A DNA stretch of 64,000 bases from Streptococcus sanguinis (GTDB lineage Bacteria; Bacillota; Bacilli; Lactobacillales; Streptococcaceae): contig NZ_CP054570.1 in the NCBI RefSeq assembly GCF_013343115.1, forward strand, positions 1,178,001 to 1,242,000, written 5' to 3'. Made by a program: the position numbers and the translations under genes. Positions 3,162-45,491 of this stretch are shown one piece after another. How positions within the stretch are numbered: position 1 is the first letter of the stretch; every line of letters starts with the position of its first letter. Under the pieces are notes generated by a model, which was not told where the DNA came from, searched no databases, and was given only the letters and a program-made list of their open reading frames with translations.

Positions 3162-3190
3162 AACTGTCCTCCTTTGAGATATTCGAGACT

Positions 3191-3196
3191 ATTATA
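3191..3196 (-). promoter_or_regulatory. Extended -10 box before the permease gene
   Basis: TGGTATAAT on the minus strand, about 30 bp before the TTG start. It lies in the 67-bp gap after the tetR gene, so the transporter may have its own promoter in addition to read-through from tetR. Confidence 0.5.
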
Positions 3197-3228
3197 CCAT
3201 AAAGAAGCAAGCTGGAAAAACTATCCTG

Positions 3229-20112: not shown

Positions 20113-23100
20113 TTAGTCTTCAGACTTCTTCTTTCTCTTCTCTAAGCCAAGAAGTCCCAAACCAGACACTCCCGCAAGTAAGCTTGCTGCCAAGTAGGAG
20201 GTTTCTTCTGTACCGGTCTTAGGAAGAGATTTTGCACCCGCACTCTTAGAAAGTGATGGCGGTGCAGGCGTAATCGTCCGCTCTGGCTGAACAGGATTTT
20301 CTGTCACAGTTGGAACGTAAACCGCTGAAATCGTCTGGCCATTACGGTCTTTGCGAATCACTGTTACGCCATCAGCTTGGCCGACAAAGCCCGTTTCTGG
20401 TACAAAGGTTACAGTGCCATCTGGCGCAATCGTGTAGGTTCCTTGGCCTGGAACAACCTTTTCAGTACTTCCATCCTCGAAAGTTGGCGGAACAGTTGGA
20501 TCCACGTCGCCTTCAAAGATTGGTTTGCCAGTCTGCGGCTGTCCTTTTAGACCTATGCTGCTGGTATCTTCTGTAGCAGTACTTCCCAAAACAGTTGGGG
20601 TATAGGTTGCCGTCACGGCATTGCCATAAATATCTGAACGTTTCACGACAACTCCGCGAGCAGTTCCGACAAAGTCGGCTTCCGGCACAAAGGTCACTGC
20701 TCCCAGCATATTGAACCGATATGTTCCTTCTCCTGGGACAACCATCTCTGTGCTGCCGTCCGCAAAGGTCGGTGCTACTGCCTGGTCAATCGCTCCTTCA
20801 AAGATTGGCGTGCCCGTTTGAGCTTGGCCCTTGCGGCCGCTAGATACACTGTCCTTGCTAGTTGATGGTTCAACTACGGTTGGAACATAGCGAGCTGTAA
20901 CTGAAGTGCCATTCTTATCACGACGGACAAGGGTCACACCAGTACCCTGACCAAGGAAATCAGCATCTGGAGTGAAGGTGACTGTACCGTCTGGTGCGAT
21001 GGTGTATGTTCCCTGACCTGGAATAGTCTTTTCCTTGCTTCCGTCTTCGAAGGTTGGCTCTACTGATTCATCAATTGGAACCAATGGATCACCTGCTTCG
21101 AAGACAGGTTTGCCAGTCTGAACATGGCCTTTGATATTCGTAGAGGTCGCATCTTTACCAGTTGGAGTAACCTTGGCAAACTCTGGACTGTAGGTAGCCG
21201 TCACTGGCGTACCGTTCTTATCCACTCGCTTCACAGTGATAGGATCCGGTTTGCCTACAAATTGCTTGTCTGGAGTGAAGGTCACTGAGCCATCTGGGGC
21301 AATCGTGTAAGTTCCTTGACCTGGAATCACTTTTTCCTTGTTGCCGTCTGCGAAGGTTGCCCCTACGGTTTCATCAATTGGAACTAGTGGATCACCACCC
21401 GCAAAAATTGGGGTGCCAGTTTGTGGAACACCTTGAGGACCTGTGCTCGTTGCACTAGTACCAGTTGGAGTTACTTCTTTCACTACTGCTTGATATTTGA
21501 CGGTTACTGGAGTTCCATTCGCATCAGTCCGAGTCAATTCGAGTTCCGGTGTTTCCCCCTTGAACTGTTTGTCTGGAGTGAAAGTAAGCTTGCCGTCCGC
21601 ATCAACTTCGAACTTACCAACATTTGGTACTTCTTTAACTGCGGTACCATTATCGAATAATGGAGTTGAACCAGCTGGGAATGGAACAGAGTCATGGCCT
21701 GGAGTGAAGGTGACTTGACCTTCTTGGACTTGACCTTGCAAGCCTTCTGACTTAGTGCCAGTACCTGTTGGCGTAACCTTAGTAAACTCTGGGCTGTAAG
21801 TTGCCATTACTGGAGTTCCGTTCTTATCTACACGTTTCACAGTGACTGGATCTGGTCTGCCTACAAACTGCTTGTCTGGCGTGAAGGTCACTGCTCCATC
21901 TGGAGTAATGGTGTAAGTTCCCTGACCTGGAATAGTCTTTTCCTTGCTTCCATCTTCAAAGGTCGGCTCAACGGTTTCATCAATTGGAACTAATGGATCA
22001 CCACCTTGGAAAGTTGGTGTACCAGTTTGTGGAACACCTTGAGGACCAGTGCTAGTCGCATTGGTGCCAGTTGGAATCACTTCTTTCACTACTGCTTGAT
22101 ATTTGACGGTGATAGGAGTACCGTTGGCATCCACACGAGTTAATTCGAGTTCCGGTGTTTCACCCTTGAATTGTTTGTCTGGAGTAAAGGTCACCTTACC
22201 ATCTGCATCCACTTCGAACTTACCAACATTTGGTACTTCTTTGACAGAAGAACCATTGTCAAATAACGGAGTCGAACCAGCAGGGAATGGAACTGAATCG
22301 TGACCAGGGGTGAAGGTCACTTTACCTTCTTGCACTTGACCTTGCAAGCCTTCTGTCTTGGCACCAGTGCCAGTTGGAGTTACTTTCGTAAATTCTGGAC
22401 TATAGGTAGCCGTCACTGGAGTGCCATTCTTGTCCACACGTTTTACAGTGATTGAATCTGGTTTACCTACAAACTGTTTGTCTGGCGTGAAGGTCACTGC
22501 GCCATCCGGTGCAATCGTGTATGTTCCTTGACCTGGAATAGTCTTCTTCTTGGTACCATCTTCGAAGCTTGGTTCAACGGTTTCATCGATTGGAACTAGT
22601 GGATCACCGCCAGCAAAAGTCGGAGTGCCCGTTTGCGCAACACCTTGAGGACCAGTGCTAGTTGCGTTGATACCTGTAGGAATAACTTCTTTCACTACCG
22701 CTTGATATTTGACGGTTACTGGAGTTCCATTCGCATCAGTCCGAGTTAATTCGAGTTCCGGCGTTTCACCCTTGAATTGTTTGTCTGGAGTGAAGGTCAC
22801 CTTGCCGTCCGCATCAACTTCAAACTTACCGACATTTGGAACTTCTTTAACTGCAGAACCATTATCAAACAGCGGAGTCGAACCAGCAGGGAATGAAACA
22901 GAGTCATGGCCTGGAGTGAAGCTTACTTTGCCTTCTTGAACTTGGCCTTGCAAGCCTTCTGTCTTAGTGCCAGTACCAGTTGGAGTTACTTTCGTAAATT
23001 CTGGACTGTAAGTCCCCGTCACTTCCGTGCCGTTCTTATCTACACGTTTCACAGTGACTGGATCTGGTTTACCAACATATTGTTTTTCAGGTGTGAAAGT

Positions 23101-26100: not shown

Positions 26101-28122
26101 TTGAGTCTCACCTGTAAATCCGTCCGTAGTCTGCTTCTCCCCCTTTGGAGGATAAATTCGGTGCAAGAGCATATCTTCTACTTCACCACTAAAGGCAATA
26201 CCGGTTGATTGCTCAATATCGCCTGCGTTTGTGGCAATACGGAAACGCATACCCAATTTGTCTACTTGACCGCCAGTAATATTTGGGTTGGCATTGAAGG
26301 TCAAGGTATAGTCACCAGCAGCTGTAATCTCTTGTAGGTTGCTACCTTCGCTTTCATTGAAGACTCCATCATTGTTGAAGTCTATCCATGCCTTGACATA
26401 GGATTTAGCATTGCCATTTGGATTAGCTTTGATTTTAATTGTGTAAGTTCCATTTTTTGCTTTGTCTAAATCAAGCAAATCATTAGAATTACTTAATTGA
26501 TCGTCCGCTAGTAATTGGCTGGCCCCCTCGTCCTTATGTTCCTTTTTATCGTCCAGAACCCAATCATTGGATGACTCAACATCTATATCAGCTGGCGTTG
26601 TTCCTAAATAAGGTTGATTAATGGGAGCGTCAGTCACCGAATCACGACCTGAAATGGTATGGAAGGCTTCGCCATAAGTCGCTGGCGCATCACTGCCATC
26701 CACCACTAAAAATCCCATCATCATAGCCTGTTGCCCAGATGATGCTACGTAAAATCCTACTTCAGAAGCTCCGCGTGTCATCACCACAGGAACCGTCCGT
26801 TCGTTCGAACGGTTTGGTCCAAAGACCTGAGTCCCCAAGCCACCTGTCACTGTATCCGGACTGAGGTACTTATACCAGTCTACGCTTGTATCTCTTAAGA
26901 TTAAGAGACCTCTTCTCTTTACATTTTCATCATCCAGCATTTGCTTGGTAATAACGGTGTAGGCTTCTTTGGCAGTACTCTTATTCTTCCATTCACCGAG
27001 ATATTCCCATCCTTCTCCGTTAGTAGTGAAGATAGCAAATTCACCTGGGTTGGCGTCTTCACCATCGGCCATAACCACCGTAGGGGCCACGCGCTTACCG
27101 AGATAGGTTGCCTCAATATTGAATTTCACTCCCCAGTTGGTAGAGTTCTCTGGATAGACAAGCTGCGTCTTTCGTCCTTGCGTATTAAAACCTTGATCAC
27201 GGATAGAAGTCCATTGGTTCTGGATTGCCCCCGTCACTGTAGGAGGTGTTTTCCCATATTGTGGAGCAGACTTTAGATATCCATTCTGAGCATTTGGGTC
27301 ATAAGTATTTGCTGTCGGTGTTCCTTCAACCCGTTTTCTATAAGTTTCAGTCGAGTTAAAAGGTTTAAGCTCAGTGACCGTCAGGGTTACTTCATAGCCA
27401 GGTGAAATTTCCTTCTTGAAGGTCGTTCCTACTTGGAGTCCGCCTCGTGAATCCAATCCTTTCCAACTTGCAGTATCCGAAAAATCAAGCCAAGTAATTT
27501 GTTTGGCTAATTGGGTACTATCTTTCTTGACAGATTCCTCCAAGCTTGGTTTAGGTACTCGTGGCGTAGAGATAGCATCATCTGCCCCAGCTGGTCCAGT
27601 ACCTATCGGAACTCCTGTTGTTACGCTGTTCTGTTGTCCAGTAGGTGTAGCATCCCGTCTCACACGACGAGACCGATTAGGCTGAGCTAGATCTGCGGTT
27701 GCTTCTGACTTTTCAGCCACGACAGCCGCGTTGGATGTTTCTGGTTGAACAGTGATTGGTTGAGTATTCTCAACTGGTTTAGTTGTTGTAGATTCAGTAG
27801 GTTCTTCAACTTTCTCAGAATCTGAGCTTCTTGGACTAGGATTATCATCTGATTGAGGGGTATCAGTAGCAAAAGGAAGTGCTGAACTTTCTTTTGCATG
27901 TAAATGTTCAGAAGCCACAGTTTCAGCAGAATTCACTGATGATTCGGCTATTCCTGTTTGCGAAACTTCGTTTTGGGCACCAGAATCACTAGCTTCATCA
28001 GCACTAACTTGTGCCGCTGCTCCCAAAAGAAGCAGGATTGACAAGAGCACAGAACAAACACCGACGTTTAGTTTTCGAATCGAAAACTTACGCAGGTGAG
28101 GATTAAATAAATCTTTTCCCAT
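20113..28122 (-). CDS. CshA-type fibrillar surface adhesin, 18 repeats
   Basis: 2669 residues. A YSIRK-type signal (FSIRKLNVGVCSVLLS) ends near VSADE. Then come a Ser/Thr/Glu-rich disordered part (to about 195), a non-repetitive ligand-binding region to about 790 containing MTRGASEVGFYVASSGQQ and a GEVED domain (FSGEVEDMLLHRIYPPKG), about 18 CshA repeats of roughly 100 residues, a Pro-rich stretch and the sortase signal LPKTG with membrane segment and KRKKK tail. Sortase A should link it to peptidoglycan, where it forms a fibril that binds host and bacterial partners; in S. gordonii CshA the non-repetitive region binds fibronectin. The last 978 bp of its repeat/anchor coding region are identical to the third gene. 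It is the leftmost of three tandem paralogues. Confidence 0.93.
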   Translation of the reverse strand: MGKDLFNPHLRKFSIRKLNVGVCSVLLSILLLLGAAAQVSADEASDSGAQNEVSQTGIAESSVNSAETVASEHLHAKESSALPFATDTPQSDDNPSPRSSDSEKVEEPTESTTTKPVENTQPITVQPETSNAAVVAEKSEATADLAQPNRSRRVRRDATPTGQQNSVTTGVPIGTGPAGADDAISTPRVPKPSLEESVKKDSTQLAKQITWLDFSDTASWKGLDSRGGLQVGTTFKKEISPGYEVTLTVTELKPFNSTETYRKRVEGTPTANTYDPNAQNGYLKSAPQYGKTPPTVTGAIQNQWTSIRDQGFNTQGRKTQLVYPENSTNWGVKFNIEATYLGKRVAPTVVMADGEDANPGEFAIFTTNGEGWEYLGEWKNKSTAKEAYTVITKQMLDDENVKRRGLLILRDTSVDWYKYLSPDTVTGGLGTQVFGPNRSNERTVPVVMTRGASEVGFYVASSGQQAMMMGFLVVDGSDAPATYGEAFHTISGRDSVTDAPINQPYLGTTPADIDVESSNDWVLDDKKEHKDEGASQLLADDQLSNSNDLLDLDKAKNGTYTIKIKANPNGNAKSYVKAWIDFNNDGVFNESEGSNLQEITAAGDYTLTFNANPNITGGQVDKLGMRFRIATNAGDIEQSTGIAFSGEVEDMLLHRIYPPKGEKQTTDGFTGETQTAVLHFTPKGTDRSDDSVNAVMSTQAPQILDKQGQVLTAVDGNYIRPEGTYHLTVNGNDVQVTFTPKADFSGTADGINIRWTDSNGTSTGWTSTDASDPNKNDQLTSMDGRYVPTVRKIPNYESSGLQGLEQNKTLVFNDDDANMPPVTPDASHPASFVDASGRLVTENTVPAMANGQQVGTYELDPNTGQVTFKPNKSFYGTPDPVVVQVSDTDGKAHRARYQPKVTQVTPRSINAESTGLQGQAQSGKPTFTAGDQQIPIDMSKSMTFENGMNTLEVANEGTYTINSDDTITFKPLKQFTGKATPVTVKRVDTNGTEVTATYTPNVTKVTPTSTPATSSGPQGVPQTGTPVFKEGDPAVPIDYNKQMTFDDDQPKKIVAGVGEYTINSDGSITFTPDKKYVGTPAAVTVKRVDENGTEVRATYTPTVTEVTPRSTNAVSSGLQGQQQSGKPIFTPGDKAVPIDMAQPMTFEDNQTTKKVDKVGTYVIESDGTITFTPDKQYVGTPSPVTVKRVDTNGTEVTATYTPTVKRVTPRSTNAESTGLQGQPQSGKPTFTPGDQAVPIDMTKPMTFENGTDTLVVADQGIYTINSDGSITFKPEKKFTGKATPVKVKRVDTNGTEVTATYTPTVEEVIPNATGDQTEGPQGLVQNGKITFEAGRPEVGFSVDSTPVFDTGTNVKEIENVGKFEVDIDGNITFTPVKTFVGKTPEIEVSRADVNGTIAKAKYQATVTAVKPTGVGNKTEGLQGQVQEGKVTFTPGHDSVPFPAGSTPLFDNHSTVKEVQNVGKFEVDSDGKVTFTPVKQFKGETPELELTRTDANGTPVTVKYQAVVKEVVPRGTDATSTGPQGVPQTGSPSFQGGDPLVPIDMDSPMTFDDGQPKKTVPGVGVYTINSDGSITFTPDKRYVGTPVPVTVKRVDKNGTEVTASYTPTVTKVTPTGTNATSTGPQGVPQTGIPTFQGGNPLVPIDESVEPIFEDGSKEKKIPGQGTYTIAPDGVVTFTPEKQYVGKPDPVTVKRVDKNGTEVTGTYSPEFTKVTPTGTGTKTEGLQGQVQEGKVSFTPGHDSVSFPAGSTPLFDNGSAVKEVPNVGKFEVDADGKVTFTPDKQFKGETPELELTRTDANGTPVTVKYQAVVKEVIPTGINATSTGPQGVAQTGTPTFAGGDPLVPIDETVEPSFEDGTKKKTIPGQGTYTIAPDGAVTFTPDKQFVGKPDSITVKRVDKNGTPVTATYSPEFTKVTPTGTGAKTEGLQGQVQEGKVTFTPGHDSVPFPAGSTPLFDNGSSVKEVPNVGKFEVDADGKVTFTPDKQFKGETPELELTRVDANGTPITVKYQAVVKEVIPTGTNATSTGPQGVPQTGTPTFQGGDPLVPIDETVEPTFEDGSKEKTIPGQGTYTITPDGAVTFTPDKQFVGRPDPVTVKRVDKNGTPVMATYSPEFTKVTPTGTGTKSEGLQGQVQEGQVTFTPGHDSVPFPAGSTPLFDNGTAVKEVPNVGKFEVDADGKLTFTPDKQFKGETPELELTRTDANGTPVTVKYQAVVKEVTPTGTSATSTGPQGVPQTGTPIFAGGDPLVPIDETVGATFADGNKEKVIPGQGTYTIAPDGSVTFTPDKQFVGKPDPITVKRVDKNGTPVTATYSPEFAKVTPTGKDATSTNIKGHVQTGKPVFEAGDPLVPIDESVEPTFEDGSKEKTIPGQGTYTIAPDGTVTFTPDADFLGQGTGVTLVRRDKNGTSVTARYVPTVVEPSTSKDSVSSGRKGQAQTGTPIFEGAIDQAVAPTFADGSTEMVVPGEGTYRFNMLGAVTFVPEADFVGTARGVVVKRSDIYGNAVTATYTPTVLGSTATEDTSSIGLKGQPQTGKPIFEGDVDPTVPPTFEDGSTEKVVPGQGTYTIAPDGTVTFVPETGFVGQADGVTVIRKDRNGQTISAVYVPTVTENPVQPERTITPAPPSLSKSAGAKSLPKTGTEETSYLAASLLAGVSGLGLLGLEKRKKKSED
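20300..25745 (-). repeat. CshA repeat array, about 18 units of ~302 bp
   Basis: Each unit encodes a pattern such as TSTGPQG-PQTGTPTF...GQGTYTI-PDG-VTFTP-K...KRVDKNGT. Units fall into kinds: GPQGVPQTG (A) and TEGLQGQVQEG (B) alternate in the middle (units 9-15), while the first five are of a GLQGQ-QSG kind and the last three (NIKGHVQ, GRKGQAQ, GLKGQPQ) are constant among the three genes. Counted by eye from translated unit starts. Confidence 0.85.
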
Positions 28123-28160
28123 AATAATCTCCTAAATAATCATCTAGTTACAATAGTTTT

Positions 28161-28201
28161 ATTATACAACATTCCATTTTAGTTAGCTATATATATAACT
28201 A
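28161..28201 (-). promoter_or_regulatory. Promoter and shared dyad of the first fibril gene
   Basis: -10 TATAAT (28161-28166) with a non-consensus -35. In its place is the dyad tagtta-10-taacta (28180-28201). The same arrangement, with tagtta 19 bp from the -10 start, occurs before the other two fibril genes. Confidence 0.7.
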
Positions 28202-28394
28202 TAATTATATAAAAAATTTTTAAAAAAATTGACACAAAGCATTTTATAGTCTATTTTTGAAAACAAAAGAAAAAATAGACCATAGAAAAATCCTTATAAA
28301 TTAAATAAATCTGAGAGTATCTCAGATTCTACTTTAATGTTTAACATTTTAGAAATGCTATCATGAAGTTTTTAAGATCTATTTCTTTGAATAT

Positions 28395-28423
28395 AAAGAA
28401 AAAAGATTCACTAATGAATCTTT
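28395..28423 (-). terminator. Terminator of the second fibril gene
   Basis: Minus-strand stem agattca-ttag-tgaatct followed by TTTTTTCTTT. A similar sequence ends the other genes of this cluster and its right neighbour. Confidence 0.8.
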
Positions 28424-28463
28424 CCTCTTTTAATTCAGGTGTTAGAACCTAAGTTCTCACCTC

Positions 28464-34364: not shown

Positions 34365-34401
34365 AATAATCTCCTAAATAATCATTTAAATTGCAGATTT
34401 T

Positions 34402-34442
34402 ATTATACACTATTCTATTTTAGTTATCCATATATATAACTA
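34402..34442 (-). promoter_or_regulatory. Promoter and shared dyad of the second fibril gene
   Basis: -10 TATAAT (34402-34407) and dyad tagtta-10-taacta (34421-34442), the same spacing as before the first gene. AAAAATAGAC-13-GTGTC occurs further upstream on the minus strand. Confidence 0.7.
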
Positions 34443-34499
34443 TAATTGTAAGAAACCAACATTATAATTAGACACTTTGTTGAAAACAGTCTATTTTTA

Positions 34500-34541
34500 A
34501 CAAAAAAAGAGGAAAGATCCATAAACGAATCTTTCCTCTTT
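34500..34541 (-). terminator. Terminator of the third fibril gene
   Basis: Minus-strand stem aaagaggaaagat/atctttcctcttt with an approximately 10-nt loop, followed by TTTTG. Much like the terminator at 44896-44919. Confidence 0.85.
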
Positions 34542-34574
34542 TAATTTAGTATCTGAAACCTAAATTCTTAATTT

Positions 34575-37500
34575 TTAGTCTTCAGACTTCTTCTTTCTCT
34601 TCTCTAAACCAATCAGTCCTAAACCTGATACTCCCGCAAGTAAGCTTGCTGCCAAGTAGGAGGTTTCTTCTGTACCGGTCTTAGGAAGAGATTTTGCACC
34701 CGCACTCTTAGAAAGTGATGGCGGTGCAGGCGTAATCGTCCGCTCTGGCTGAACAGGATTTTCTGTCACAGTTGGAACGTAAACCGCTGAAATCGTCTGG
34801 CCATTACGGTCTTTGCGAATCACTGTTACGCCATCAGCTTGGCCGACAAAGCCCGTTTCTGGTACAAAGGTTACAGTGCCATCTGGCGCAATCGTGTAGG
34901 TTCCTTGGCCTGGAACAACCTTTTCAGTACTTCCATCCTCGAAAGTTGGCGGAACAGTTGGATCCACGTCGCCTTCAAAGATTGGTTTGCCAGTCTGCGG
35001 CTGTCCTTTTAGACCTATGCTGCTGGTATCTTCTGTAGCAGTACTTCCCAAAACAGTTGGGGTATAGGTTGCCGTCACGGCATTGCCATAAATATCTGAA
35101 CGTTTCACGACAACTCCGCGAGCAGTTCCGACAAAGTCGGCTTCCGGCACAAAGGTCACTGCTCCCAGCATATTGAACCGATATGTTCCTTCTCCTGGGA
35201 CAACCATCTCTGTGCTGCCGTCCGCAAAGGTCGGTGCTACTGCCTGGTCAATCGCTCCTTCAAAGATTGGCGTGCCCGTTTGAGCTTGGCCCTTGCGGCC
35301 GCTAGATACACTGTCCTTGCTAGTTGATGGTTCAACTACGGTTGGAACATAGCGAGCTGTAACTGAAGTGCCATTCTTATCACGACGGACAAGGGTCACA
35401 CCAGTACCCTGACCAAGGAAATCAGCATCTGGAGTGAAGGTGACTGTACCGTCTGGTGCGATGGTGTATGTTCCCTGACCTGGAATAGTCTTTTCCTTGC
35501 TTCCGTCTTCGAAGGTTGGCTCTACTGATTCATCAATTGGAACCAATGGATCACCTGCTTCGAAGACAGGTTTGCCAGTCTGAACATGGCCTTTGATATT
35601 CGTAGAGGAAGCATTTTTACCAGTTGGGACTACTGCTTTCACTATTGCTTGATATTTGACAATAACAGGAGTTCCGTTAGTATCTAAACGAATCAATCCC
35701 AGTTCTGACGTTTCACCCTTGAATTGTTTTATTGGAGTAAAGGTCACCTTGTTATCCGCATCCACTTCGAACTTACCAACATTTGGCACTTCTTTAATAT
35801 TCTTTCCGTTACCAAAGAGTGGAGTCGAACCAGCAGGGAATGGAACTAATTTATGTCCTGGCGTAAAAGTCACTTGACCTTTTTGAACCTGACCTTGCAG
35901 ACCTTCTGTCTTGGTACCAGTACCTGTCGGAGTTACCTTGGTGAACTCTGGACTGTAGGTCGCAGTCACTGGTGTACCATTTTTATCTACTCGTTTCACA
36001 GTGATTGGGTCCGGTGTGCCTACAAATTGTTTGTCTGGGGTGAAGGTCACTGCTCCATCCGGAGTGATGGTATACGTTCCTTGACCTGGAATGATCTTCT
36101 GCTTGCTGCCATCTGCAAAGGTTGGCTCAACTGTCTCATCGATCGGAACTAGTGGGTCTGCACCTTTGAAAGTTGGAGTGCCGGTTTGCGGAAGACCTTG
36201 AGGACCTGTGCTCGTTGCGGTGGTGCCTGTTGGAGTTACCTCTTTGACTACCGCTTGGTACTTAACTGTAACAGAGGTACCATTGACATCAGTGCGAGTC
36301 AATTCAAGTTCTGGCGTTTCACCCTTGAATTGTTTGTCTGGAGTGAAAGTAACCTTGCCGTCTGCGTCCACTTCAAACTTTCCAATATTTGGTACTTCTT
36401 TAACTGTGGAACCATTGTCAAATAACGGAGTCGAACCTGCTGGGAATGGAACAGAATCATGGCCTGGAGTGAAGGTAACTTTGCCTTCTTGAACTTGGCC
36501 TTGCAAGCCTTCTGTTTTAGTGCCGGTACCTGTTGGAGTCACCTTGGTAAACTCTGGACTGTAAGTCGCAGTTACTGGAGTACCATTCTTATCCACACGT
36601 TTAACAGTGATTGGATCAGGTTTGCCTACAAACTGCTTGTCTGGAGTAAAGGTCACTGAGCCATCTGGAGTAATGGTGTAAGTTCCCTGACCTGGAATGG
36701 TCTTTTCCTTGCTACCATCGTCGAAGCTTGGCTCAACTGTTTCGTCAATCGGAACCAATGGATCACCACCTGCAAAGGTTGGGGTGCCCGTTTGAGGAAG
36801 GCCTTGTGGGCCAGTGCTAGTTGCGGTAGTTCCTATTGGGGTCACTTTCTCAACAGTAGGCGTGTACTTAGCCGTCACTGGAGTACCATTCTTATCTACT
36901 CGCTTAACAACAACTGGGTCTGGTGTTCCAACAAATTGCTTGTCCGGTGTGAAAGTGACAGATCCATCTGGTGTTACTTCGAAGATTCCGACATTTGGAA
37001 CTTCCTTGCGTTTGCTTCCATCATCGAAAGTCGCTGGAGTATCATTATCCAGTGGTACATTCGGGTCGCCACCAACAAAGTTTGGTTTACCTGTTTGAGG
37101 GCGGCCTTGTGGGCCTGTACTGGTTGAGGTGGTGCCTGTTGGAGCTGCCTCTTTCACTACCGCTTGGTACTTGACGGTTACTGATGTTCCATTGGCATCC
37201 ACACGAGTCAATTCGAGTTCCGGTGTTTCACCCTTGAATTGTTTGTCTGGAGTGAAAGTAACCTTACCGTCTGCGTCCACTTCGAACTTACCAACATTCG
37301 GTACTTCTTTGACAGAAGAGCCATTGTCAAATAACGGAGTCGAACCAGCTGGGAATGTAACTGAATCATGACCAGGCGTGAAGGTCACTTTGCCTTCTTG
37401 GACTTGGCCTTGAAGACCTTCTGTCTTGGTGCCAGTACCTGTCGGAATAACAGCAGTCACAGTCGCTTGGTAGTTAGCCTTAGCTACTGTACCATTGACA

Positions 37501-40500
37501 TCGGCGCGTCTGATTTCGATTTCTGGTGTCTTACCGACAAACGTTTTAACTGGAGTAAAGGTAACATTACCCTCCATATCAACCTCGAACTTACCGACTT
37601 TGGCAATTTCTTTGACATTCGTGCCAGTGTCAAAGACTGGTGTACTGTTTTCTGGGAAGCCGACTTGCGGATTTCCTGCTTCAAAAGTAATCTTACCTTT
37701 TTGAACTTGGCCTTGAAGCCCCTCTGTCTGAGCACCTGTGGCTCTTGGAGTGACTTTTTCAACAGTTGGTGTGTACTTAGCCGTCACTGGTGTACCATTC
37801 TTATCTACCCGCTTAACAGTTACCGGATCTGGTGTACCAACATATTGCTTGTCAGGTGTGAAAGTGACAGATCCATCTGGTGCTACTTCAAAGGTACCGA
37901 CATTTGGAACTTCCTTGCGTTTACTTCCATCATCGAAAGTCGCTGGGGTATCATTATCCAGTGGTACATTCGGGTCGCCACCAACAAAGTTTGGTTTACC
38001 CGTTTGTGGACGGCCTTGTGGGCCAGAGCTGGTTGAGGTAGTACCTGTCGGAGTGACTTCTTTCACTACCGCTTGGTACTTAACTGTAACAGGGGTACCG
38101 TTGGCATCTACACGAGTCAATTCAAGTTCTGGCGTTTCACCCTTGAATTGTTTGTCTGGAGTGAAAGTCACCTTGCCGTCCGCATCCACTTCGAACTTAC
38201 CAACATTTGGCACTTCTTTAACTGCGGTACCATTATCGAATAATGGAGTTGAACCTGCCGGGAATGGAACTGAATCATGGCCTGGAGTGAAGCTAACATG
38301 ACCTTCTTGAACCTGACCTTGCAAGCCTTCTGTCTTAGTACCGGTGCCTGTTGGAGTTACCTTGGTAAACTCTGGACTGTAGGTCGCTGTCACTGGTGTG
38401 CCGTTCTTATCCACTCGTTTTACTGTGACTGGATCTGGTTTACCTACAAATTGCTTGTCTGGCGTGAAGGTCACTGCTCCATCCGGAGTGATGGTATACG
38501 TTCCTTGACCTGGAATGGTCTTCTTCTTGCTTCCATCTTCAAAGGTCGGTTCAACTGTTTCGTCAATCGGAACCAATGGATCACCACCTGCAAAGGTCGG
38601 TGTGCCAATTTGAGGAAGACCTTGTGGACCGGTGCTTGTTGCATTGGTACCTGTTGGAGTTACTTTAGTAAACTCTGGACTGTAAGTTGCCGTCACTGGT
38701 GTGCCGTTCTTGTCCACTCGCTTCACTGTGATTGGGTCCGGTGTGCCTACAAACTGCTTCTCTGGCGTGAAGGTCACTACGCCATCTGGAGTAATGGTGT
38801 ACGTTCCCTGGCCTGGAATCTTCTTCTCCTTACTTCCATCTGCGAAAGTTGGCTCAACAGTTTCATCGATTGGAACTAGTGGGTCTGCACCTTTGAAAGT
38901 TGGAGTTCCTGTTTGCGGCATACCTTGTGGACCGATGCTCGTCACGGTGGTACCTGTCGGAGTTACTTCTTTCACTACCGCTTGGTACTTAACTGTAACA
39001 GGAGTTCCGTTGGCATCCACACGAATAATTCCTAATTCTGGTGTTTCACCCTTGAACTGTTTGTCTGGAGTGAAGGTCACAATGCCATCTGCATCTACTT
39101 CGAACTTACCGATATTTGGTATTTCTTTAATATTTTTTCCGTTACCAAATAGCGGAGTCGAGCCTGCTGGGAATGGAACTAATTCATGGCCTGGCGTGAA
39201 GGTGACATGACCTTTTTGAACCTGACCTTGTAATCCTTCTGTCTTATCACCAGTACCTGTCGGAGTAACAGCTGTCACAGTTGCTTGGTAGTTGGCTTTT
39301 GCTGCTGTACCATTGACATCTGTACGGCTAAGTTCAACTTCTGGTGTCTTACCAACAAACGATTTGACTGGTGTGAAAGTAACATTCCCCTCTGTATCAA
39401 CCTCGAACTTACCGACTTTGGCAATTTCTTTGAAATTCGTACCAGTATCAAAGACCGGTGAGCTGCCGGTTGGGAAGCCGACTTGCGGACTTCCTGCTTC
39501 AAAAGTAACCTTGCCTTTTTGAACTTGGCCTTGAAGCCCCTCCGTCTGAGCACCTGTCGCTCTTGGAGTCACTTTCTCAACAGTTGGCGTATAGTTAGCT
39601 GTCACAGGAGTGCCATTTTTGTCCACTCGCTTAACAACAACTGGATCTGGCGTCCCAACATATTGCTTATCTGGGGTAAAGGTAACAGAACCGTCTGGTG
39701 CCACTTCAAAGATACCGACATTTGGAACAACCTTGCGCTTGCTTCCATCATCGAAAGTAGCCGGAGTATCATTATCCAGTGGAACTCCCGGAGTGCCGCT
39801 CACGAAGTTTGGCTTGCCTGTTTGTGGACGGCCTTGCTCACCAATGCTGGTAATATTTGTTCCCGTTGGAACCACTTCTTTCACTACAGCTTGGTATTTG
39901 ACGGTGACAGGAGTGCCATTCACATCAGCTCGAACCAATGTCAGCTCAGGAGTGGTTCCCTTAAACTGCTTCTCTGGCGTGAAAGTAACCTTACCATTGG
40001 CATCCACTTCAAATTTACCAACGGTTGGAATCTCTTTAACAGTCAAACCATTGTCAAAGAGTGGAGTTGTTTCAGCTGGGAATGGTACAGAAGCATGACC
40101 AGGCGTGAAGGTGACATGACCTTCTTGAACCTGACCTTGCAATCCTTCTGTCTTATCACCAGTACCAGTTGGAGTCACCTTGGTAAACTCTGGACTGTAA
40201 GTCGCAGTGACTGGTGTACCATTCTTATCGACTCGTTTTACAGTGATTGGATCTGGCTTGCCTACAAACTGCTTCTCTGGCGTGAAGGTCACTGTGCCAG
40301 TTGGTGCAATGGTGTAGGTTCCCTGACCTGGAATAGCTTTCTTCTTACTGCCATCTTCGAAAGTTGGCTCTACTGCTTCATCAATCGGAACTAACGGATC
40401 ACCACCTTGGAAAGTTGGGGTACCCGTTTGCGGAAGACCTTGAGGACCTGTGCTAGTCACATTAGTTCCTGTTGGAGTTACTGATGTGACCGTCGCGATA

Positions 40501-43500
40501 TAAGTGACTTTCGCGGCAATACCATTTGCATCTTTGCGAGAAATGCTAATTTCTGGTGTTTCACCCTTGAACTGTTTGTCTGGCGTGAAGGTGACATTGC
40601 CCTCCGCATCTACTTCAAACTTACCGACTTTGGCAATTTCTTTGACATTCGTACCCGTGTCAAAGACTGGCGTGCTGTTGGCTGGGAATCCGACTTTTGG
40701 ATCGCCAGCTTTAAAAGTTACACGGCCCTTTTGAACTTGGCCTTGCGGACCTTCTGTCTGATCTCCAGTTCCCGTCGGAGTCACAGCGGTCACAGTCGCT
40801 CGATATTTGGCCTTGGCTAATGTACCGTTGACATCTGTACGACTGAGTTCAACTTCAGGAGTTTTACCTACAAAGGTTTTGACTGGAGTAAAGGTGACAT
40901 TACCCTCTCCGTCCACTTCGAACTTACCGACTTTGGCAATTTCTTTGACATTAGTGCCGGTGTCAAAGACTGGCGTGCTGTTTTCTGGGAAACCAACTTG
41001 AGGACTTCCTGGTTCAAAAGTAACCTTGCCTTTTTGAACTTGACCTTGTGGCCCTTTTGTCTGAGCGCCTGTTGCTCTTGGGGCCACTTTCTCAACAGTA
41101 GGCGTGTACTTAGCAGTCACTGGCGTACCATTCTTATCCACTCGCTTAACAAGAACTGGGTCTGGTGTCCCAACAAATTGCTTGTCAGGTGTGAAAGTGA
41201 CAGATCCATCTGGTGTTACTTCAAAGATACCGACATTTGGAACCACCTTGCGCTTGCTTCCATCATCGAAAGTCGCAGGAGTGTCATTATCCATTGGTAC
41301 ATCTGGATTGCCACTTACAAAGTTTGGCTTACCTATCTGTGGACGGCCTTGTTTACCAGTGCTGGTAATGTTTGTCCCTGTTGGAGTAACAGCAGTGACT
41401 GTTGCCTTGTAGATAGCTGTAGCTGTGCTACCATTCCTATCTGTACGAGTAATCCTGATGTCTGGCGTAAGGCCTTTAAATTGTTTCTCTGGAGTAAAGG
41501 TTACATTTCCATCCTCATCCACTTCAAACTTACCAACAGTAGGCACTTCTTTAACAGCCGAACCATTGTCAAAGAGCGGAGTTGAGCCAGCTGGAAAGGC
41601 CACCGTTTGTTTTTGACCATTGACTTGCGCAGAACCTTCTGTGAAGCTGACTTTTCCTCGCTGAACTTGACCTTGTCTACCACTGGTTTCAGCATTCGTT
41701 GCACTTGGTGCTGCTGCTTTCACATCAGCCTGATAGGTAGCTGTTACTTCTGTTCCATTGACATCTACTCGCTTGACAGTCTCTGCCGCTGGACGTCCAG
41801 TATAAGTCGGCAGTGGAGTAAAGGTTACTAGGCCTTGATTATCCACCTGATAAGTGCCGACACCAGCAACTGTTTTAGTTTGGCTGTCATTATCAAAGGT
41901 TGGCAACTTCTTGCTATCAATAGGAACACGATTATTGCCTGGATTGAAGGTCAATTGCCCTGTCTGAACTGCACCTTGAATGCCCTCGCTGCTGGCACCT
42001 TGAGCAGTTGGTCTAACAGGAGTCACCTTTGGCTGATAAACAGCTTGATGCGGAATACCTTTGCCATCAGTCAGCTGAACGGAAACAGGGTCTACAGTCC
42101 CAACAAAGTTTTTGTTTGGTTTGAAAGTAATCTTACCTGTTGCAGGTTGGATTTCAAAACGACCGACTTCCCGACCATTTGATAAAGCTGGAACTCTAGT
42201 ATCATCTGTAGTCGCTCCATCTGCTTTCACAAATTTCACAGGATTTGCTGCAGTCGGATTTGCCGGAGTTTTGCCAGCATCACCATCATTAAAGACAGGC
42301 GTCTTTTCTTGCTTTAGTCCTTGAGCATCCGTTGTTTCATACTTAGGAACATTGAGCACGGTTGGCACATAGCGTCCATCCATGGTGTTGAGCTGGTCAT
42401 TGATGGCTGCTTCAGCCTGATTCTTGGCAATCCAATCTGTACTTGCGCCGTTAGTATCAAAACGACGGATGTTAATCCCCTGGGCTGTGCCGACAAAGCC
42501 AGTCTTAGGCTCATATACCACATCTACATCCGCACCGTTTGCTGTTACTTTATAACGGCCTTCAGCAGTGTTATACCAGCCTGCTGCATCAGCAGTCAGG
42601 GCATTTCCTCTCGCATCCAATACAATCGGAGCTTTAGTAGTATCAATCGCTACTCTCTTATTTTCAGTATTTTTAGCAATCCCCTGAGGAGTGAAATGAA
42701 GAGTGGCTGTCTGTCTCTGATCACGGATTCCAGTACTTTCCTTCTTCTCCCCTTTTGGTGGATAGGTCAGTTCAACTTCTAGGTCTTCAACCTCACCACT
42801 AAATGCTGTTCCAGTAGGCTTTTCAATATCTCCCTTGTTCAAGGCAATACGAACCCGCATTCCCAGCTTGCTAAGTTCAGGATTGGTCATGGCTGGATTC
42901 TTCTTAAAGTTGACAGTATAATCTCCCGCAGTTGTTACTTCGGTAAATTCACTGGCTTCGTCTTCGTCAAAGACACCATTATTATTGAAGTCAATCCAGG
43001 CGCGGACATAGGCTTTTTCGTATCCGTTAGCTGAAGCATGGATGCCGAGAGAATAATCTCCGTCATGCAGACGGTTTACTGGAAAAAGACCATTGGTTTT
43101 CCCGACTAAATCATCAGACAAGAGCTGATTAATACCTTCATCGGCTAAATCATTCTGATCGTCATGCTTCCAGTTGTTTCCAGATGTGGTATCAATATCA
43201 GCCTCCACTCGGCCCAAGAATGGCTGTGGATTTTGACCGCCAGTTTCAGCATTGTATCTTGAAATAGCATGGATAGCTTTTCCATAAGAATCCGGTGCAT
43301 CCCCTTCATCAATTGCCATAAAACCAATCATCGCAGCCTGCTGGCCAGAAGAAGCTATATAAATACCAACCTCTGATGCACCACGTGTCATGACAAGCGG
43401 AATTGTATTGTGTCTAGAAACGTTCGGTCCAAATACTTGACTTCCCAGTCCGCCAGTCTTTTGATCAGGACTGACATAGGCCTGCCAATGAACCCCAGTA

Positions 43501-44753
43501 CCGTCATTTCCAATAAATTGGCCTTCTGTAGTAGGCTTCATTGGCTTATAGGTTTCTGTAATCTCAGTAGTCACACCATTTGCGCCTGTAACTGTACGCT
43601 TCCATTCGGCCAAATGTTCCCAACCCTTACCATTGGTTGTAAAGATAGCATACTCACCAGGGTTTGCCTCTTCTCCATCAGCCATGACAACGGTTGCTTT
43701 AACAGGCTTCCCACGATATCTAGCTTCAACTTTGAACTTCACGCCATAGTTGGCTTCATCTTTAGGAACCTGGAGTTGGGTTTTACGGCCTTTGGTATCA
43801 ATTCCTTCTGACTTAATAGCTGAATATTGATTCTGAGCAGCACCAGTAATTTTAGGACGGTAATCATCACCATACCAATACTGATAAGCATAATTATTGC
43901 TATTGTTATATTGAAGCCAAGTATTTTTTGCATTGGGATCATAACTGCTTTCGTACTCAGTTCCCTTTACTCGATCACGATAGATCTCTGTCGCATAGAA
44001 AGGTTTCAATTCAGTAACAGTCAGTTTGACCACATAGCCTGGAGAAATTTCCTTCTCATATACTGTTCCAACTTTAAAGGAGCCATCTTTATCTAGATTT
44101 CTCAGTGATTTAGTATCACCAAAATCTAGCCAGTTTACCTGCTTCATCAACTCATCAGAACGTTTCCTCACTGATTCTTCCAGTGTTGGTTTAGAAACTG
44201 TAGGATTAGGTGTTGCATCTTGTATAGCAGAGCTAGCTTGACCAGCAGGACTGGCTGTACGGAATGATGTTCCTGCCTCCATTGGCTGGCCATTACGCTC
44301 AGACCTCGGTATAGCTGCAGAACTTGGTTTTGGCGTATATTGTACTGAATAAGAGCGAGTCCGACTAGCTTCAGCAGGTCTTGCTTCATTAGAGGTCTCA
44401 GCTGTTTGATTAGCTTCTTGCGCCTTTTCAGGTGTCACTTGCTCTGGGGCAGAAGCTGGACTTACCAGCTGATTTTGATTAACAATTGCTTCTGAGTTAG
44501 CTGTTTCAGAAACAGCGGATGTTGCTGTATTCTCAAGAGCAGGCTGACTGACTGGCTGACTCATAGCAGAGTCCGTCGGTTTTTCGGGCAGTGAGATATT
44601 ATCATCTACAGATCCGCTGGCAGTTTCATCTGCATTGACTGTAGCCGCAGTACCTAAAAGGAAAACGGTAGATAATAATACCGAGCAAACTCCGACATTT
44701 AATTTTCGAATCGAAAACTTGTTTAAATGGGGGTTAAATAATTCTTTTCCCAT
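34575..44753 (-). CDS. CshA-type fibrillar surface adhesin, 25 repeats
   Basis: About 3392 residues from ATG 44753, which has AGGAGA upstream; an in-frame ATG at 44783 lies within the leader and lacks a ribosome site. Leader FSIRKLNVGVCSVLLS, disordered segment to about 180, ligand-binding region to about 800 with GEVED domain, about 25 repeats and LPKTG anchor. The stalk is the longest of the three. Repeats fall into at least four kinds: A GPQGLPQTG, B GLQGQVQEG, C GPQGRPQTGKPNF and D GAQTEGLQGQVQKG. C-D-B triplets occur twice (units 9-11 and 15-17). As the rightmost gene it is transcribed first, but each gene has its own promoter and terminator. Confidence 0.93.
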   Translation of the reverse strand: MGKELFNPHLNKFSIRKLNVGVCSVLLSTVFLLGTAATVNADETASGSVDDNISLPEKPTDSAMSQPVSQPALENTATSAVSETANSEAIVNQNQLVSPASAPEQVTPEKAQEANQTAETSNEARPAEASRTRSYSVQYTPKPSSAAIPRSERNGQPMEAGTSFRTASPAGQASSAIQDATPNPTVSKPTLEESVRKRSDELMKQVNWLDFGDTKSLRNLDKDGSFKVGTVYEKEISPGYVVKLTVTELKPFYATEIYRDRVKGTEYESSYDPNAKNTWLQYNNSNNYAYQYWYGDDYRPKITGAAQNQYSAIKSEGIDTKGRKTQLQVPKDEANYGVKFKVEARYRGKPVKATVVMADGEEANPGEYAIFTTNGKGWEHLAEWKRTVTGANGVTTEITETYKPMKPTTEGQFIGNDGTGVHWQAYVSPDQKTGGLGSQVFGPNVSRHNTIPLVMTRGASEVGIYIASSGQQAAMIGFMAIDEGDAPDSYGKAIHAISRYNAETGGQNPQPFLGRVEADIDTTSGNNWKHDDQNDLADEGINQLLSDDLVGKTNGLFPVNRLHDGDYSLGIHASANGYEKAYVRAWIDFNNNGVFDEDEASEFTEVTTAGDYTVNFKKNPAMTNPELSKLGMRVRIALNKGDIEKPTGTAFSGEVEDLEVELTYPPKGEKKESTGIRDQRQTATLHFTPQGIAKNTENKRVAIDTTKAPIVLDARGNALTADAAGWYNTAEGRYKVTANGADVDVVYEPKTGFVGTAQGINIRRFDTNGASTDWIAKNQAEAAINDQLNTMDGRYVPTVLNVPKYETTDAQGLKQEKTPVFNDGDAGKTPANPTAANPVKFVKADGATTDDTRVPALSNGREVGRFEIQPATGKITFKPNKNFVGTVDPVSVQLTDGKGIPHQAVYQPKVTPVRPTAQGASSEGIQGAVQTGQLTFNPGNNRVPIDSKKLPTFDNDSQTKTVAGVGTYQVDNQGLVTFTPLPTYTGRPAAETVKRVDVNGTEVTATYQADVKAAAPSATNAETSGRQGQVQRGKVSFTEGSAQVNGQKQTVAFPAGSTPLFDNGSAVKEVPTVGKFEVDEDGNVTFTPEKQFKGLTPDIRITRTDRNGSTATAIYKATVTAVTPTGTNITSTGKQGRPQIGKPNFVSGNPDVPMDNDTPATFDDGSKRKVVPNVGIFEVTPDGSVTFTPDKQFVGTPDPVLVKRVDKNGTPVTAKYTPTVEKVAPRATGAQTKGPQGQVQKGKVTFEPGSPQVGFPENSTPVFDTGTNVKEIAKVGKFEVDGEGNVTFTPVKTFVGKTPEVELSRTDVNGTLAKAKYRATVTAVTPTGTGDQTEGPQGQVQKGRVTFKAGDPKVGFPANSTPVFDTGTNVKEIAKVGKFEVDAEGNVTFTPDKQFKGETPEISISRKDANGIAAKVTYIATVTSVTPTGTNVTSTGPQGLPQTGTPTFQGGDPLVPIDEAVEPTFEDGSKKKAIPGQGTYTIAPTGTVTFTPEKQFVGKPDPITVKRVDKNGTPVTATYSPEFTKVTPTGTGDKTEGLQGQVQEGHVTFTPGHASVPFPAETTPLFDNGLTVKEIPTVGKFEVDANGKVTFTPEKQFKGTTPELTLVRADVNGTPVTVKYQAVVKEVVPTGTNITSIGEQGRPQTGKPNFVSGTPGVPLDNDTPATFDDGSKRKVVPNVGIFEVAPDGSVTFTPDKQYVGTPDPVVVKRVDKNGTPVTANYTPTVEKVTPRATGAQTEGLQGQVQKGKVTFEAGSPQVGFPTGSSPVFDTGTNFKEIAKVGKFEVDTEGNVTFTPVKSFVGKTPEVELSRTDVNGTAAKANYQATVTAVTPTGTGDKTEGLQGQVQKGHVTFTPGHELVPFPAGSTPLFGNGKNIKEIPNIGKFEVDADGIVTFTPDKQFKGETPELGIIRVDANGTPVTVKYQAVVKEVTPTGTTVTSIGPQGMPQTGTPTFKGADPLVPIDETVEPTFADGSKEKKIPGQGTYTITPDGVVTFTPEKQFVGTPDPITVKRVDKNGTPVTATYSPEFTKVTPTGTNATSTGPQGLPQIGTPTFAGGDPLVPIDETVEPTFEDGSKKKTIPGQGTYTITPDGAVTFTPDKQFVGKPDPVTVKRVDKNGTPVTATYSPEFTKVTPTGTGTKTEGLQGQVQEGHVSFTPGHDSVPFPAGSTPLFDNGTAVKEVPNVGKFEVDADGKVTFTPDKQFKGETPELELTRVDANGTPVTVKYQAVVKEVTPTGTTSTSSGPQGRPQTGKPNFVGGDPNVPLDNDTPATFDDGSKRKEVPNVGTFEVAPDGSVTFTPDKQYVGTPDPVTVKRVDKNGTPVTAKYTPTVEKVTPRATGAQTEGLQGQVQKGKITFEAGNPQVGFPENSTPVFDTGTNVKEIAKVGKFEVDMEGNVTFTPVKTFVGKTPEIEIRRADVNGTVAKANYQATVTAVIPTGTGTKTEGLQGQVQEGKVTFTPGHDSVTFPAGSTPLFDNGSSVKEVPNVGKFEVDADGKVTFTPDKQFKGETPELELTRVDANGTSVTVKYQAVVKEAAPTGTTSTSTGPQGRPQTGKPNFVGGDPNVPLDNDTPATFDDGSKRKEVPNVGIFEVTPDGSVTFTPDKQFVGTPDPVVVKRVDKNGTPVTAKYTPTVEKVTPIGTTATSTGPQGLPQTGTPTFAGGDPLVPIDETVEPSFDDGSKEKTIPGQGTYTITPDGSVTFTPDKQFVGKPDPITVKRVDKNGTPVTATYSPEFTKVTPTGTGTKTEGLQGQVQEGKVTFTPGHDSVPFPAGSTPLFDNGSTVKEVPNIGKFEVDADGKVTFTPDKQFKGETPELELTRTDVNGTSVTVKYQAVVKEVTPTGTTATSTGPQGLPQTGTPTFKGADPLVPIDETVEPTFADGSKQKIIPGQGTYTITPDGAVTFTPDKQFVGTPDPITVKRVDKNGTPVTATYSPEFTKVTPTGTGTKTEGLQGQVQKGQVTFTPGHKLVPFPAGSTPLFGNGKNIKEVPNVGKFEVDADNKVTFTPIKQFKGETSELGLIRLDTNGTPVIVKYQAIVKAVVPTGKNASSTNIKGHVQTGKPVFEAGDPLVPIDESVEPTFEDGSKEKTIPGQGTYTIAPDGTVTFTPDADFLGQGTGVTLVRRDKNGTSVTARYVPTVVEPSTSKDSVSSGRKGQAQTGTPIFEGAIDQAVAPTFADGSTEMVVPGEGTYRFNMLGAVTFVPEADFVGTARGVVVKRSDIYGNAVTATYTPTVLGSTATEDTSSIGLKGQPQTGKPIFEGDVDPTVPPTFEDGSTEKVVPGQGTYTIAPDGTVTFVPETGFVGQADGVTVIRKDRNGQTISAVYVPTVTENPVQPERTITPAPPSLSKSAGAKSLPKTGTEETSYLAASLLAGVSGLGLIGLEKRKKKSED
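34770..42350 (-). repeat. CshA repeat array, about 25 units of ~303 bp
   Basis: Higher-order order by eye from the N-terminal end: three divergent units, C D D A B C D B A A B C D B C A B A B, then the three constant C-terminal units. The near-identity of units at DNA level makes recombination and assembly collapse likely. Confidence 0.8.
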
Positions 44754-44788
44754 AGAATCTCCTATATTAATATTTAATAGCAATTGGT

Positions 44789-44829
44789 ATTATACAACAT
44801 TTATATTTAGTTAGCCATGGATATGACTG
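44789..44829 (-). promoter_or_regulatory. Promoter and partial shared dyad of the third fibril gene
   Basis: -10 TATAAT (44789-44794). tagtta (44808-44813) is 19 bp from the -10 start as in the other genes; the other half-site is degenerate (tgactg, 44824-44829). Confidence 0.6.
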
Positions 44830-44885
44830 TAGTTGAGGGGCATAGTGTCCAAAAATAGACACATAAAAAAAAGACTCCATTTTTA

Positions 44886-44919
44886 TAGCAAAAAAAGAAG
44901 ATCCGCAAACGAATCTTCT
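44886..44919 (-). terminator. Terminator of the flavin reductase gene
   Basis: Minus-strand stem agaagat/atcttct (44896-44919) followed by a T run. Confidence 0.75.
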
Positions 44920-44924
44920 CACTT

Positions 44925-45417
44925 TTAACCTTCTGATAAAACCTTATCTAATTTTTCCTGTAGGGCTGCTAATTCCCAACCTTCGATTTCTTTTAGCTCA
45001 TGATTGGTTACTGCCAGCCCCTCATATTCGAGTCCGCAGTTCTGGCAAAAGCGGCTCATCACGTAGTCCAGCATTTCAATTTCTTTGCTAGGTTGAGAAC
45101 CTTGCAGGAGGAAAAACACCTTTTTGCCCTTGAGTGCTTCCTGCGGCTCATGCACATCAGCCAATCGGTCCAACAGGGTTTTTAGCAGACCCGAAAAAGA
45201 CCACCAATAAATAGGACTGGTAAAGACCAGTACATCAGCCTGACTCAGTTGCTCATAGACTTGAAAGAACTGGTCGTTTTCTGCTGACTGGCCATATTGC
45301 TCAATGTGGTAGTCCACTAATTGAAGGGCCTCGTAATCTCTATCCCGCAAAAAAAAAATGCCCAAACTTAAAACTATTACCATTCCTATTCGGACTGGCG
45401 TTTACCAAATAAATCAT
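44925..45417 (-). pseudogene. NAD(P)H-dependent FMN reductase-like gene with a frameshift in a T10 run
   Basis: The open frame 44925-45383 encodes most of a flavodoxin-fold reductase (FTSPIYWWSFSGLLKTLLDR is the FMN-binding loop region) but its apparent N terminus is unnatural. From ATG 45417, with AGGAG upstream, the other frame gives MIYLVNASPNRNGNS, the expected phosphate-binding loop, and stops after the T10 run (A10 at 45349-45358 on the plus strand). Deleting one T gives a continuous protein of about 163 residues. So the gene is either phase-variable by slippage in the homopolymer, a true mutant, or a sequencing error. The product would reduce FMN or a quinone. Confidence 0.75.
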
Positions 45418-45491
45418 AGCTTCTCTTCTCCTCTATTCTTTTTCCAATTATATCAAAAAAGAGGGAAGCAAACAATGCTCACCCCTACTAT

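What the first reader, a model, noticed from the sequence alone, without database searches (positions are those of the whole stretch)
20113..44753. Three tandem CshA-type fibril genes that differ mainly in stalk length
Seen: three consecutive same-strand genes share leader, N-terminal non-repetitive part (about 792, 780 and 801 residues), last three repeats and LPKTG anchor, yet carry about 18, 11 and 25 repeats. Known: CshA of S. gordonii has about 17 repeats and forms fibrils. Inference: the cell may show a graded set of the same adhesive tip at different heights, so contact can be made at several distances or when capsule or other fibrils mask the short form. A tandem ladder of this kind is unusual and worth functional tests.
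Basis: partly seen in the sequence, partly recalled or inferred. Interest (0 to 1): 0.8.

Follow-up and report, generated by a model that had tools for sequence, protein, structure and literature searches.

The report
Three-height Csh adhesin gene trio
An oral Streptococcus sanguinis carries side by side three related genes for long hair-like adhesins whose binding tips differ and whose stalks are short, medium and long; the genes themselves were already annotated in this species, and I found no description of the fixed pairing of different tips with different lengths.

Summary
The observation largely holds: three tandem minus-strand CshA/CshB-family genes (20113-28122, 28464-34364, 34575-44753) carry 19, 12 and 26 CshA repeats. 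The headline "differ mainly in stalk length" does not. Within a genome the NR2 tips are 53-74% identical, while each tip is 85-100% identical between 8 genomes; the tips form separate tree groups, g1 with S. gordonii CshB, and pocket sites and a pocket-side insertion differ. What the genes share is the base: the last 341 codons are as alike between paralogues as between orthologues, even at four-fold sites (0.76-0.79 against 0.72-0.75), so tails are homogenised by recombination. The length order is real and conserved: in 8 of 8 genomes with whole frames g2 (10-13 repeats) < g1 (17-21) < g3 (22-27). Each gene has its own promoter module, found nowhere else in the genome. The genes are already named A, B and C in S. 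sanguinis records, and S. gordonii CshA is already listed as a Periscope Protein. Best reading: three different tips shown at three heights. Function, expression and selection on height are inferred.

The parts
20113..28122 (-). g1: CshA/CshB-family fibrillar adhesin, 2669 aa, 19 CshA repeats, tip of the CshB type (matches S. sanguinis 'fibrillar surface protein C')
28464..34364 (-). g2: CshA/CshB-family fibrillar adhesin, 1966 aa, 12 CshA repeats (matches 'fibrillar surface protein B')
34575..44753 (-). g3: CshA/CshB-family fibrillar adhesin, 3392 aa from the ATG at 44753, 26 CshA repeats (matches SK36 'CshA-like fibrillar surface protein A')
26524..27492 (-). NR2 tip domain of g1; nearest solved structure S. 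gordonii CshB NR2 (6YZG)
32814..33797 (-). NR2 tip domain of g2; 7-residue pocket-side insertion and Lys at the CshA Asp337 place
43143..44132 (-). NR2 tip domain of g3; 8-residue pocket-side insertion and Lys at the CshA Asp337 place
20296..26148 (-). g1 repeat stalk, 19 units of about 101 aa
28647..32432 (-). g2 repeat stalk, 12 units
34758..42758 (-). g3 repeat stalk, 26 units
20113..21138 (-). g1 base: last 341 codons and stop (three last repeats and LPKTG anchor), homogenised between paralogues
28464..29489 (-). g2 base, as above
34575..35600 (-). g3 base, as above
28161..28191 (-). promoter module of g1 (TATAGCTAACTAAAATGGAATGTTGTATAAT)
34402..34432 (-). promoter module of g2 (1 mismatch to the pattern)
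44789..44819 (-). promoter module of g3 (2 mismatches to the pattern)
34505..34542 (-). intrinsic-terminator-like hairpin between g3 and g2
   Evidence: 1 found; shuffles mean 0.1
28307..28329 (-). intrinsic-terminator-like hairpin between g2 and g1
   Evidence: 1 found; shuffles mean 0.0
18275..19924 (+). fbpA-like NFACT gene, convergent with g1; marks one side of the locus

Best explanation
The three genes are paralogues of the CshA/CshB fibrillar adhesin family, each built of the same modules: a private adhesive tip (NR1-NR2-NR3), first repeats in a gene-specific order, a middle stalk whose length changes mostly in steps of one 101-aa repeat, and a common base with the sortase anchor. Shown by sequence: tips stay apart between genes and constant between strains, tails are homogenised between paralogues and strains, lengths keep the order g2 < g1 < g3, and each gene has its own copy of a promoter module found nowhere else in this genome. 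Inferred: the three proteins are made by the same cell and present three different tips at three heights, B (g2) low, C (g1) middle, A (g3) far. The C tip most likely binds fibronectin in the CshB manner; the A and B tips have a changed pocket rim and so probably another affinity or ligand. It works like a set of three Periscope-type adhesins with different heads rather than one head at three heights.
For: Domains. NR2 tree of 61 rows: g1 with S. gordonii CshB 100/99, that group with CshA 97/97, g2 group with three relatives 100/98, g3 group 100/98. NR2 paralogues 0.534-0.735 against orthologues 0.854-1.000 over 8 genomes; last 341 aa paralogues 0.897-0.997 against orthologues 0.871-0.971. Four-fold sites: tips 0.268-0.397 (paralogues) against 0.820-0.865 (orthologues); tails 0.758-0.790 against 0.718-0.750. 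Repeat counts g2 10-13, g1 17-21, g3 22-27 in 8 of 8 genomes with whole frames, and the same last three repeats in all 25 proteins typed. Median lengths of complete listed alleles 1966 (g2), 2770 (g1), 3190 (g3). CshA pocket sites 300/337/338: D/D/D in CshA, Y/M/N in CshB, Q or K/E/N in six of eight g1 rows, E/K/N plus a 7-residue insertion in nine of nine S. sanguinis g2 rows, S/K/D plus 8 residues in nine of nine g3 rows. Promoter motif: 3 matches in 2.36 Mb, all at these genes, reversed-pattern control 0. The pocket and the CshA/CshB affinity difference are from PMC10952558 (passages and one section).
Against: Nothing here shows expression, fibrils or ligands. D365, E367 and M481, whose mutants that paper used to find the fibronectin pocket, are kept in 35 of 35 rows, so all three tips might bind fibronectin; CshA and CshB also differ in the pocket yet both bind it. 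The g1 pocket varies among strains: two of eight rows depart (G145 K/E/D; SK355 D/K/N, so Lys337 is not confined to g2 and g3). The middle stalk keeps a gene-specific order, so the constant rank may be slow inheritance, not selection, and the genomes are close relatives. 10 of 120 listed g3 alleles are no longer than the longest g1 allele. Draft assemblies can collapse or break such repeats. Of 12 genomes looked at with a Csh gene at this locus, G062, SK49 and S. gordonii DD07 show one tip only, all with broken frames, and G104 has three tips with broken frames. The tree has long branches and 18 of 58 inner branches open.
Confidence: 0.6

Rival explanations
1. Three adhesins with different tips whose stalk lengths are incidental: lengths were set in the founding copies and drift by a few repeats, so the rank is history, not function.
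For: Stalk strings keep gene-specific order with changes of a few units; the genomes compared are close relatives, so 8 of 8 is not 8 independent cases.
Against: Lengths do turn over (about 7 main classes among 120 g1 alleles, 4 among 120 g2 alleles, more among 120 g3 alleles), yet listed g2 (longest 2067) and g1 (shortest 2366) never overlap. The two whole single-gene relatives with a B-type tip, G118 and G059, have 15 and 21 repeats, so a B tip is not bound to a short stalk elsewhere; two cases are few.
Confidence: 0.28
2. One reading: one adhesive tip shown at graded heights.
For: All three tips are CshA_NR2 and keep D365, E367 and M481; lengths are graded.
Against: Tips are 53-74% identical within a genome and only 0.27-0.40 identical at four-fold sites, form separate tree groups, and differ at pocket sites and by a pocket-side insertion.
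Confidence: 0.1
3. Assembly artefact: repeat collapse or expansion made the differing lengths.
For: Four related assemblies have broken frames here: G104, G062, SK49, DD07.
Against: Eight genomes, three of them in one contig, give whole frames with the same rank; tips and upstream regions differ, so the three genes are separate.
Confidence: 0.02

Closest known systems
S. sanguinis CshA-like fibrillar surface proteins A, B and C (SK36 SSA_0904 and SSA_0905 for A and B; SSA_0906 for C is recalled)
   Same: Orthologues by tip: SK36 protein A is P0253 (g3 list, 2990 aa, 22 repeats), SK408 protein B (partial) is P0190 (g2 list), SK1087 protein C is P0046 (g1 list).
   Different: Other repeat numbers; tip divergence, tail homogenisation and the conserved length order were not found described in the ten paper searches made.
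S. gordonii CshA and CshB
   Same: CshA_NR2 tips of the same family; the g1 tip is nearest to CshB.
   Different: In S. gordonii cshB lies at a locus distant from cshA (PMC10952558, passage); here three genes are in tandem, and g2 and g3 tips lie outside the CshA/CshB group.
Periscope Proteins (SasG, Rib, Sgo_0707, CshA)
   Same: Stalk of similar domains whose number varies among strains; CshA of S. gordonii is listed as one (PMC8201768, passages).
   Different: Here three paralogues with non-overlapping repeat ranges in 8 genomes coexist in one genome with different tips; neighbouring repeats in g1 and g3 are often only 35-45% identical.

Membership tests
CshA/CshB fibrillar adhesins | YSIRK leader and LPXTG anchor | tested here: met
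CshA/CshB fibrillar adhesins | CshA_NR2 tip domain (PF18651) | tested here: met
   E 6.3e-31, 1.4e-30 and 4.2e-30; to 5L2D and 6YZG
CshA/CshB fibrillar adhesins | CshA repeats (PF19076, TIGR04225) | tested here: met
   19, 12 and 26 stretches
CshA/CshB fibrillar adhesins | fibronectin binding | not testable with these tools
   pocket residues D365, E367, M481 kept, sites 300/337/338 changed
CshA/CshB fibrillar adhesins | visible surface fibrils | not testable with these tools
   needs electron microscopy
Periscope Proteins | repeat number varies between strains in whole repeats | tested here: met
Periscope Proteins | neighbouring repeats highly identical | tested here: inconclusive
   g2 middle 0.78-0.93; g1 and g3 neighbours 0.18-0.86, mostly under 0.7, with next-but-one up to 0.94 (amino acids of this genome)
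Periscope Proteins | rod-like stalk projecting an N-terminal binding domain | not testable with these tools
   domain order fits; no model of the stalk was made

The most novel reading that the evidence does not exclude
S. sanguinis encodes a layered adhesive surface: three different binding heads, each tied by selection to its own height, under one private promoter element, with gene conversion keeping the anchor end uniform while heads and heights are held apart.
Probability: 0.3. Interest if true: 0.65.

Novelty: new variant of a known kind. Interest (0 to 1): 0.42.

Why it matters
It is a natural test case for the open question of what stalk length is for in fibrillar adhesins: three heads with three non-overlapping ranges of repeat number in one genome, in a commensal that can also cause endocarditis. 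It also shows how a repeat-rich family can keep heads distinct while bases are homogenised.

Tried and rejected
AlphaFold2 models of the g3 and g1 NR2 domains from ten-row alignments were poor (mean pLDDT 43.6 and 48.9), so no fold search was run on them; the NR2 identity rests on sequence. A first promoter pattern, written with a wrong spacing, found nothing; the pattern already used found the three sites. That pattern was drawn from these three sites, so only the absence of other sites is informative. Papers on CshA architecture (PMC7212634), catch-clamp binding (PMC5290933) and the SK36 genome (PMC1855836) are not held. A search for streptococcal fibrils of two named lengths found nothing. 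An endocarditis fitness screen of S. sanguinis does not mention these genes in its main text (five terms). The idea that the whole gene, stalk included, is homogenised was dropped: middle repeats keep a gene-specific order. The idea that fbpA marks the Csh locus in the genus at large was dropped: 15 of 18 stretches from other genomes lack it (one of these stretches is cut inside the gene), while it is found in 11 of 12 genomes of this locus.

Full report
What is there. The window lies in a 2.36 Mb one-contig genome of the Streptococcus sanguinis group: the N-terminal part of the third gene is 95-97% identical (best segment) to seven named S. sanguinis strains. Three minus-strand genes follow one another between an FMN-reductase and acetolactate-decarboxylase side and a convergent fbpA-like gene. 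They are the only CshA_NR2 matches of the genome (3). Each has a YSIRK leader, CshA_NR2, GEVED, CshA repeats and a Gram-positive anchor; repeats number 19, 12 and 26.

Tips. In this genome NR2 is 57-72% identical between the genes. Over 8 genomes in which all three frames are whole (24 genes, one of which, g2 of G046, lacks the start motif that I searched for and was taken from the stop-to-stop frame), NR2 paralogues within one genome are 0.534-0.735 identical and NR2 orthologues 0.854-1.000. A tree of 61 NR2 rows was made from loci in hand, not from all 92 genomes with a match; six far relatives were left out and hits covering under about 220 residues had been dropped. It gives separate groups: g1 with S. 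gordonii CshB (100/99), these with CshA (97/97), g2 with SK49, G118 and G059 (100/98), g3 (100/98). The root is a midpoint, some branches are long, and 18 of 58 inner branches are open. At the sites that PMC10952558 names as differing between the CshA and CshB pockets (300, 337, 338) the tips differ again: E/K/N in nine of nine S. sanguinis g2 rows, S/K/D in nine of nine g3 rows, Q or K/E/N in six of eight g1 rows (G145 has K/E/D, SK355 D/K/N). g2 and g3 carry 7 and 8 extra residues beside site 300. Sites 365, 367 and 481, which that paper mutated to find the pocket, are kept in 35 of 35 rows (paper passages). So a shared fibronectin pocket is possible; a shared affinity looks unlikely.

Tails. 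The last 341 aa are 0.897-0.997 identical between paralogues of one genome and 0.871-0.971 between orthologues. At four-fold degenerate sites paralogue tails are 0.758-0.790 identical and orthologue tails 0.718-0.750, while paralogue tips (residues 46-640, which include the poorly alignable NR1) are 0.268-0.397 and orthologue tips 0.820-0.865. A constraint on the protein does not explain alike silent sites; recombination (gene conversion) between paralogues and strains does. In this genome the g1 and g3 tails differ at 6 of 1026 nt, the closest of the 8 genomes (0.994 against 0.873-0.933 in the other seven).

Stalks. Typing of repeats in the 24 genes and SK36 protein A shows first repeats in a gene-specific order (N-O in g1, J-P-K-Q in g2, J-L-K-M in g3; types J and K occur in both g2 and g3), a middle in which types A, B, C and D occur in two or three of the genes while I occurs in g1 and E in g3 only, and the same last three repeats F-G-H in all 25. 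Counts are g2 10-13, g1 17-21, g3 22-27, without overlap. In the protein collection, the best 120 of 4542, 4205 and 5841 matches (ranked by tip likeness; about 7,980 candidates scored each time; each list includes this genome's own protein) have lengths 2366-2972 (g1), 1764-2067 (g2) and 1978-3590 (g3), mostly in 101-aa steps. Where two genes could be matched by equal contig length, the order held in 35 of 35 pairs (10 g2/g1, 8 g1/g3, 17 g2/g3); the matches were picked by eye, are not exhaustive, and equal contig length as a sign of one contig is an inference. The lists favour relatives of this strain, and short-read assemblies may miscount repeats.

Expression. Each gene is preceded by a module TATAnnTAACTAAA...TGTATAAT that ends 35-38 nt before its ATG. 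The pattern, drawn from these three sites, occurs three times in the genome with up to 3 mismatches, at these genes only; reversed control 0. TGTATAAT is seen at 23 of 24 genes of the 8 genomes, the part upstream of it varying by a few bases; the G046 g2 upstream was not picked up by my start pattern. Terminator-like hairpins lie between g3 and g2 and between g2 and g1; none was found after g1. A consensus scan of 44700-45550 found no sigma-70-type promoter upstream of g3, nor do its hits stand out from shuffles in the g2-g1 gap. Three separate transcripts under one control are thus likely, not shown.

Distribution. Of 247 Streptococcus genomes, 92 have CshA_NR2. By number of matches 8 have three, one (G104) has four including a fragment, 10 have two (in one of them, G076, the two matches adjoin and look like pieces of one broken gene), and 73 have one. 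Twelve genomes were looked at for the locus between the decarboxylase gene and fbpA: the decarboxylase is found in 12 of 12 stretches and fbpA in 11 of 12 (the G173 contig ends first). Eight have three whole genes; G104 has three tips and broken frames; G062, SK49 and S. gordonii DD07 have one tip and broken frames. Strain BCC31 was not counted, as its held stretch shows only the g3-type tip before the contig ends. Strain names of G handles are read from equal contig lengths.

What is known. S. sanguinis records already name the three: SK36 SSA_0904 is CshA-like fibrillar surface protein A and SSA_0905 is B (PMC2909906, one table passage); proteins labelled A, B and C fall in the g3, g2 and g1 lists. 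CshA of S. gordonii is listed among Periscope Proteins with strain-variable repeat number (PMC8201768, passages). CshA and CshB NR2 differ about 1.7-fold in fibronectin affinity with a changed pocket, and that paper reports pocket and capping loop as highly mutable (PMC10952558, passages, section 3.4). I found no paper on the trio's tip divergence, length order or tail homogenisation in the searches; most subscription papers are not held.

How it most likely works. Sortase fixes three proteins by an interchangeable base; the stalk sets the height; the private tip sets the partner. B stands lowest, C in the middle, A farthest. The C tip should bind fibronectin as CshB does; A and B tips should differ in affinity or partner. 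Whether height is under selection is open: vertical inheritance with slow repeat gain and loss would also keep the order in close relatives. Two whole single-gene relatives with a B-type tip have 15 and 21 repeats, so the short stalk may belong to the trio setting and not to the tip as such; two cases are few.

Noticed in passing
L165, L166 (G107): Another tandem pair of Csh-type genes in a different streptococcus: 13 repeats in one and at least 33 in the other (frame cut by the stretch), tips 62% identical (205/330).
   Followed up: partly
   Followed up: partly
   Followed up: no
window 44845-44862: An inverted repeat GTGTC-N8-GACAC lies upstream of the g3 promoter; in the rows seen, g1 and g2 upstream regions have at most the first arm.
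   Followed up: no
window 20296-42758: The base-side half of the g1 stalk and much of the g3 stalk alternate repeat types that are about 40% alike, while the middle of g2 is a run of one type.
   Followed up: partly
window 18275-19924: The fbpA homologue is convergent with g1; in S. gordonii FbpA is reported to act through CshA expression (PMC2885655 and PMC7761167, passages).
   Followed up: partly
L155 (G062): A one-contig genome with a g3-type tip and no other Csh tip, at the same locus, with the frame broken in the stalk; perhaps the trio can collapse by recombination.
   Followed up: no
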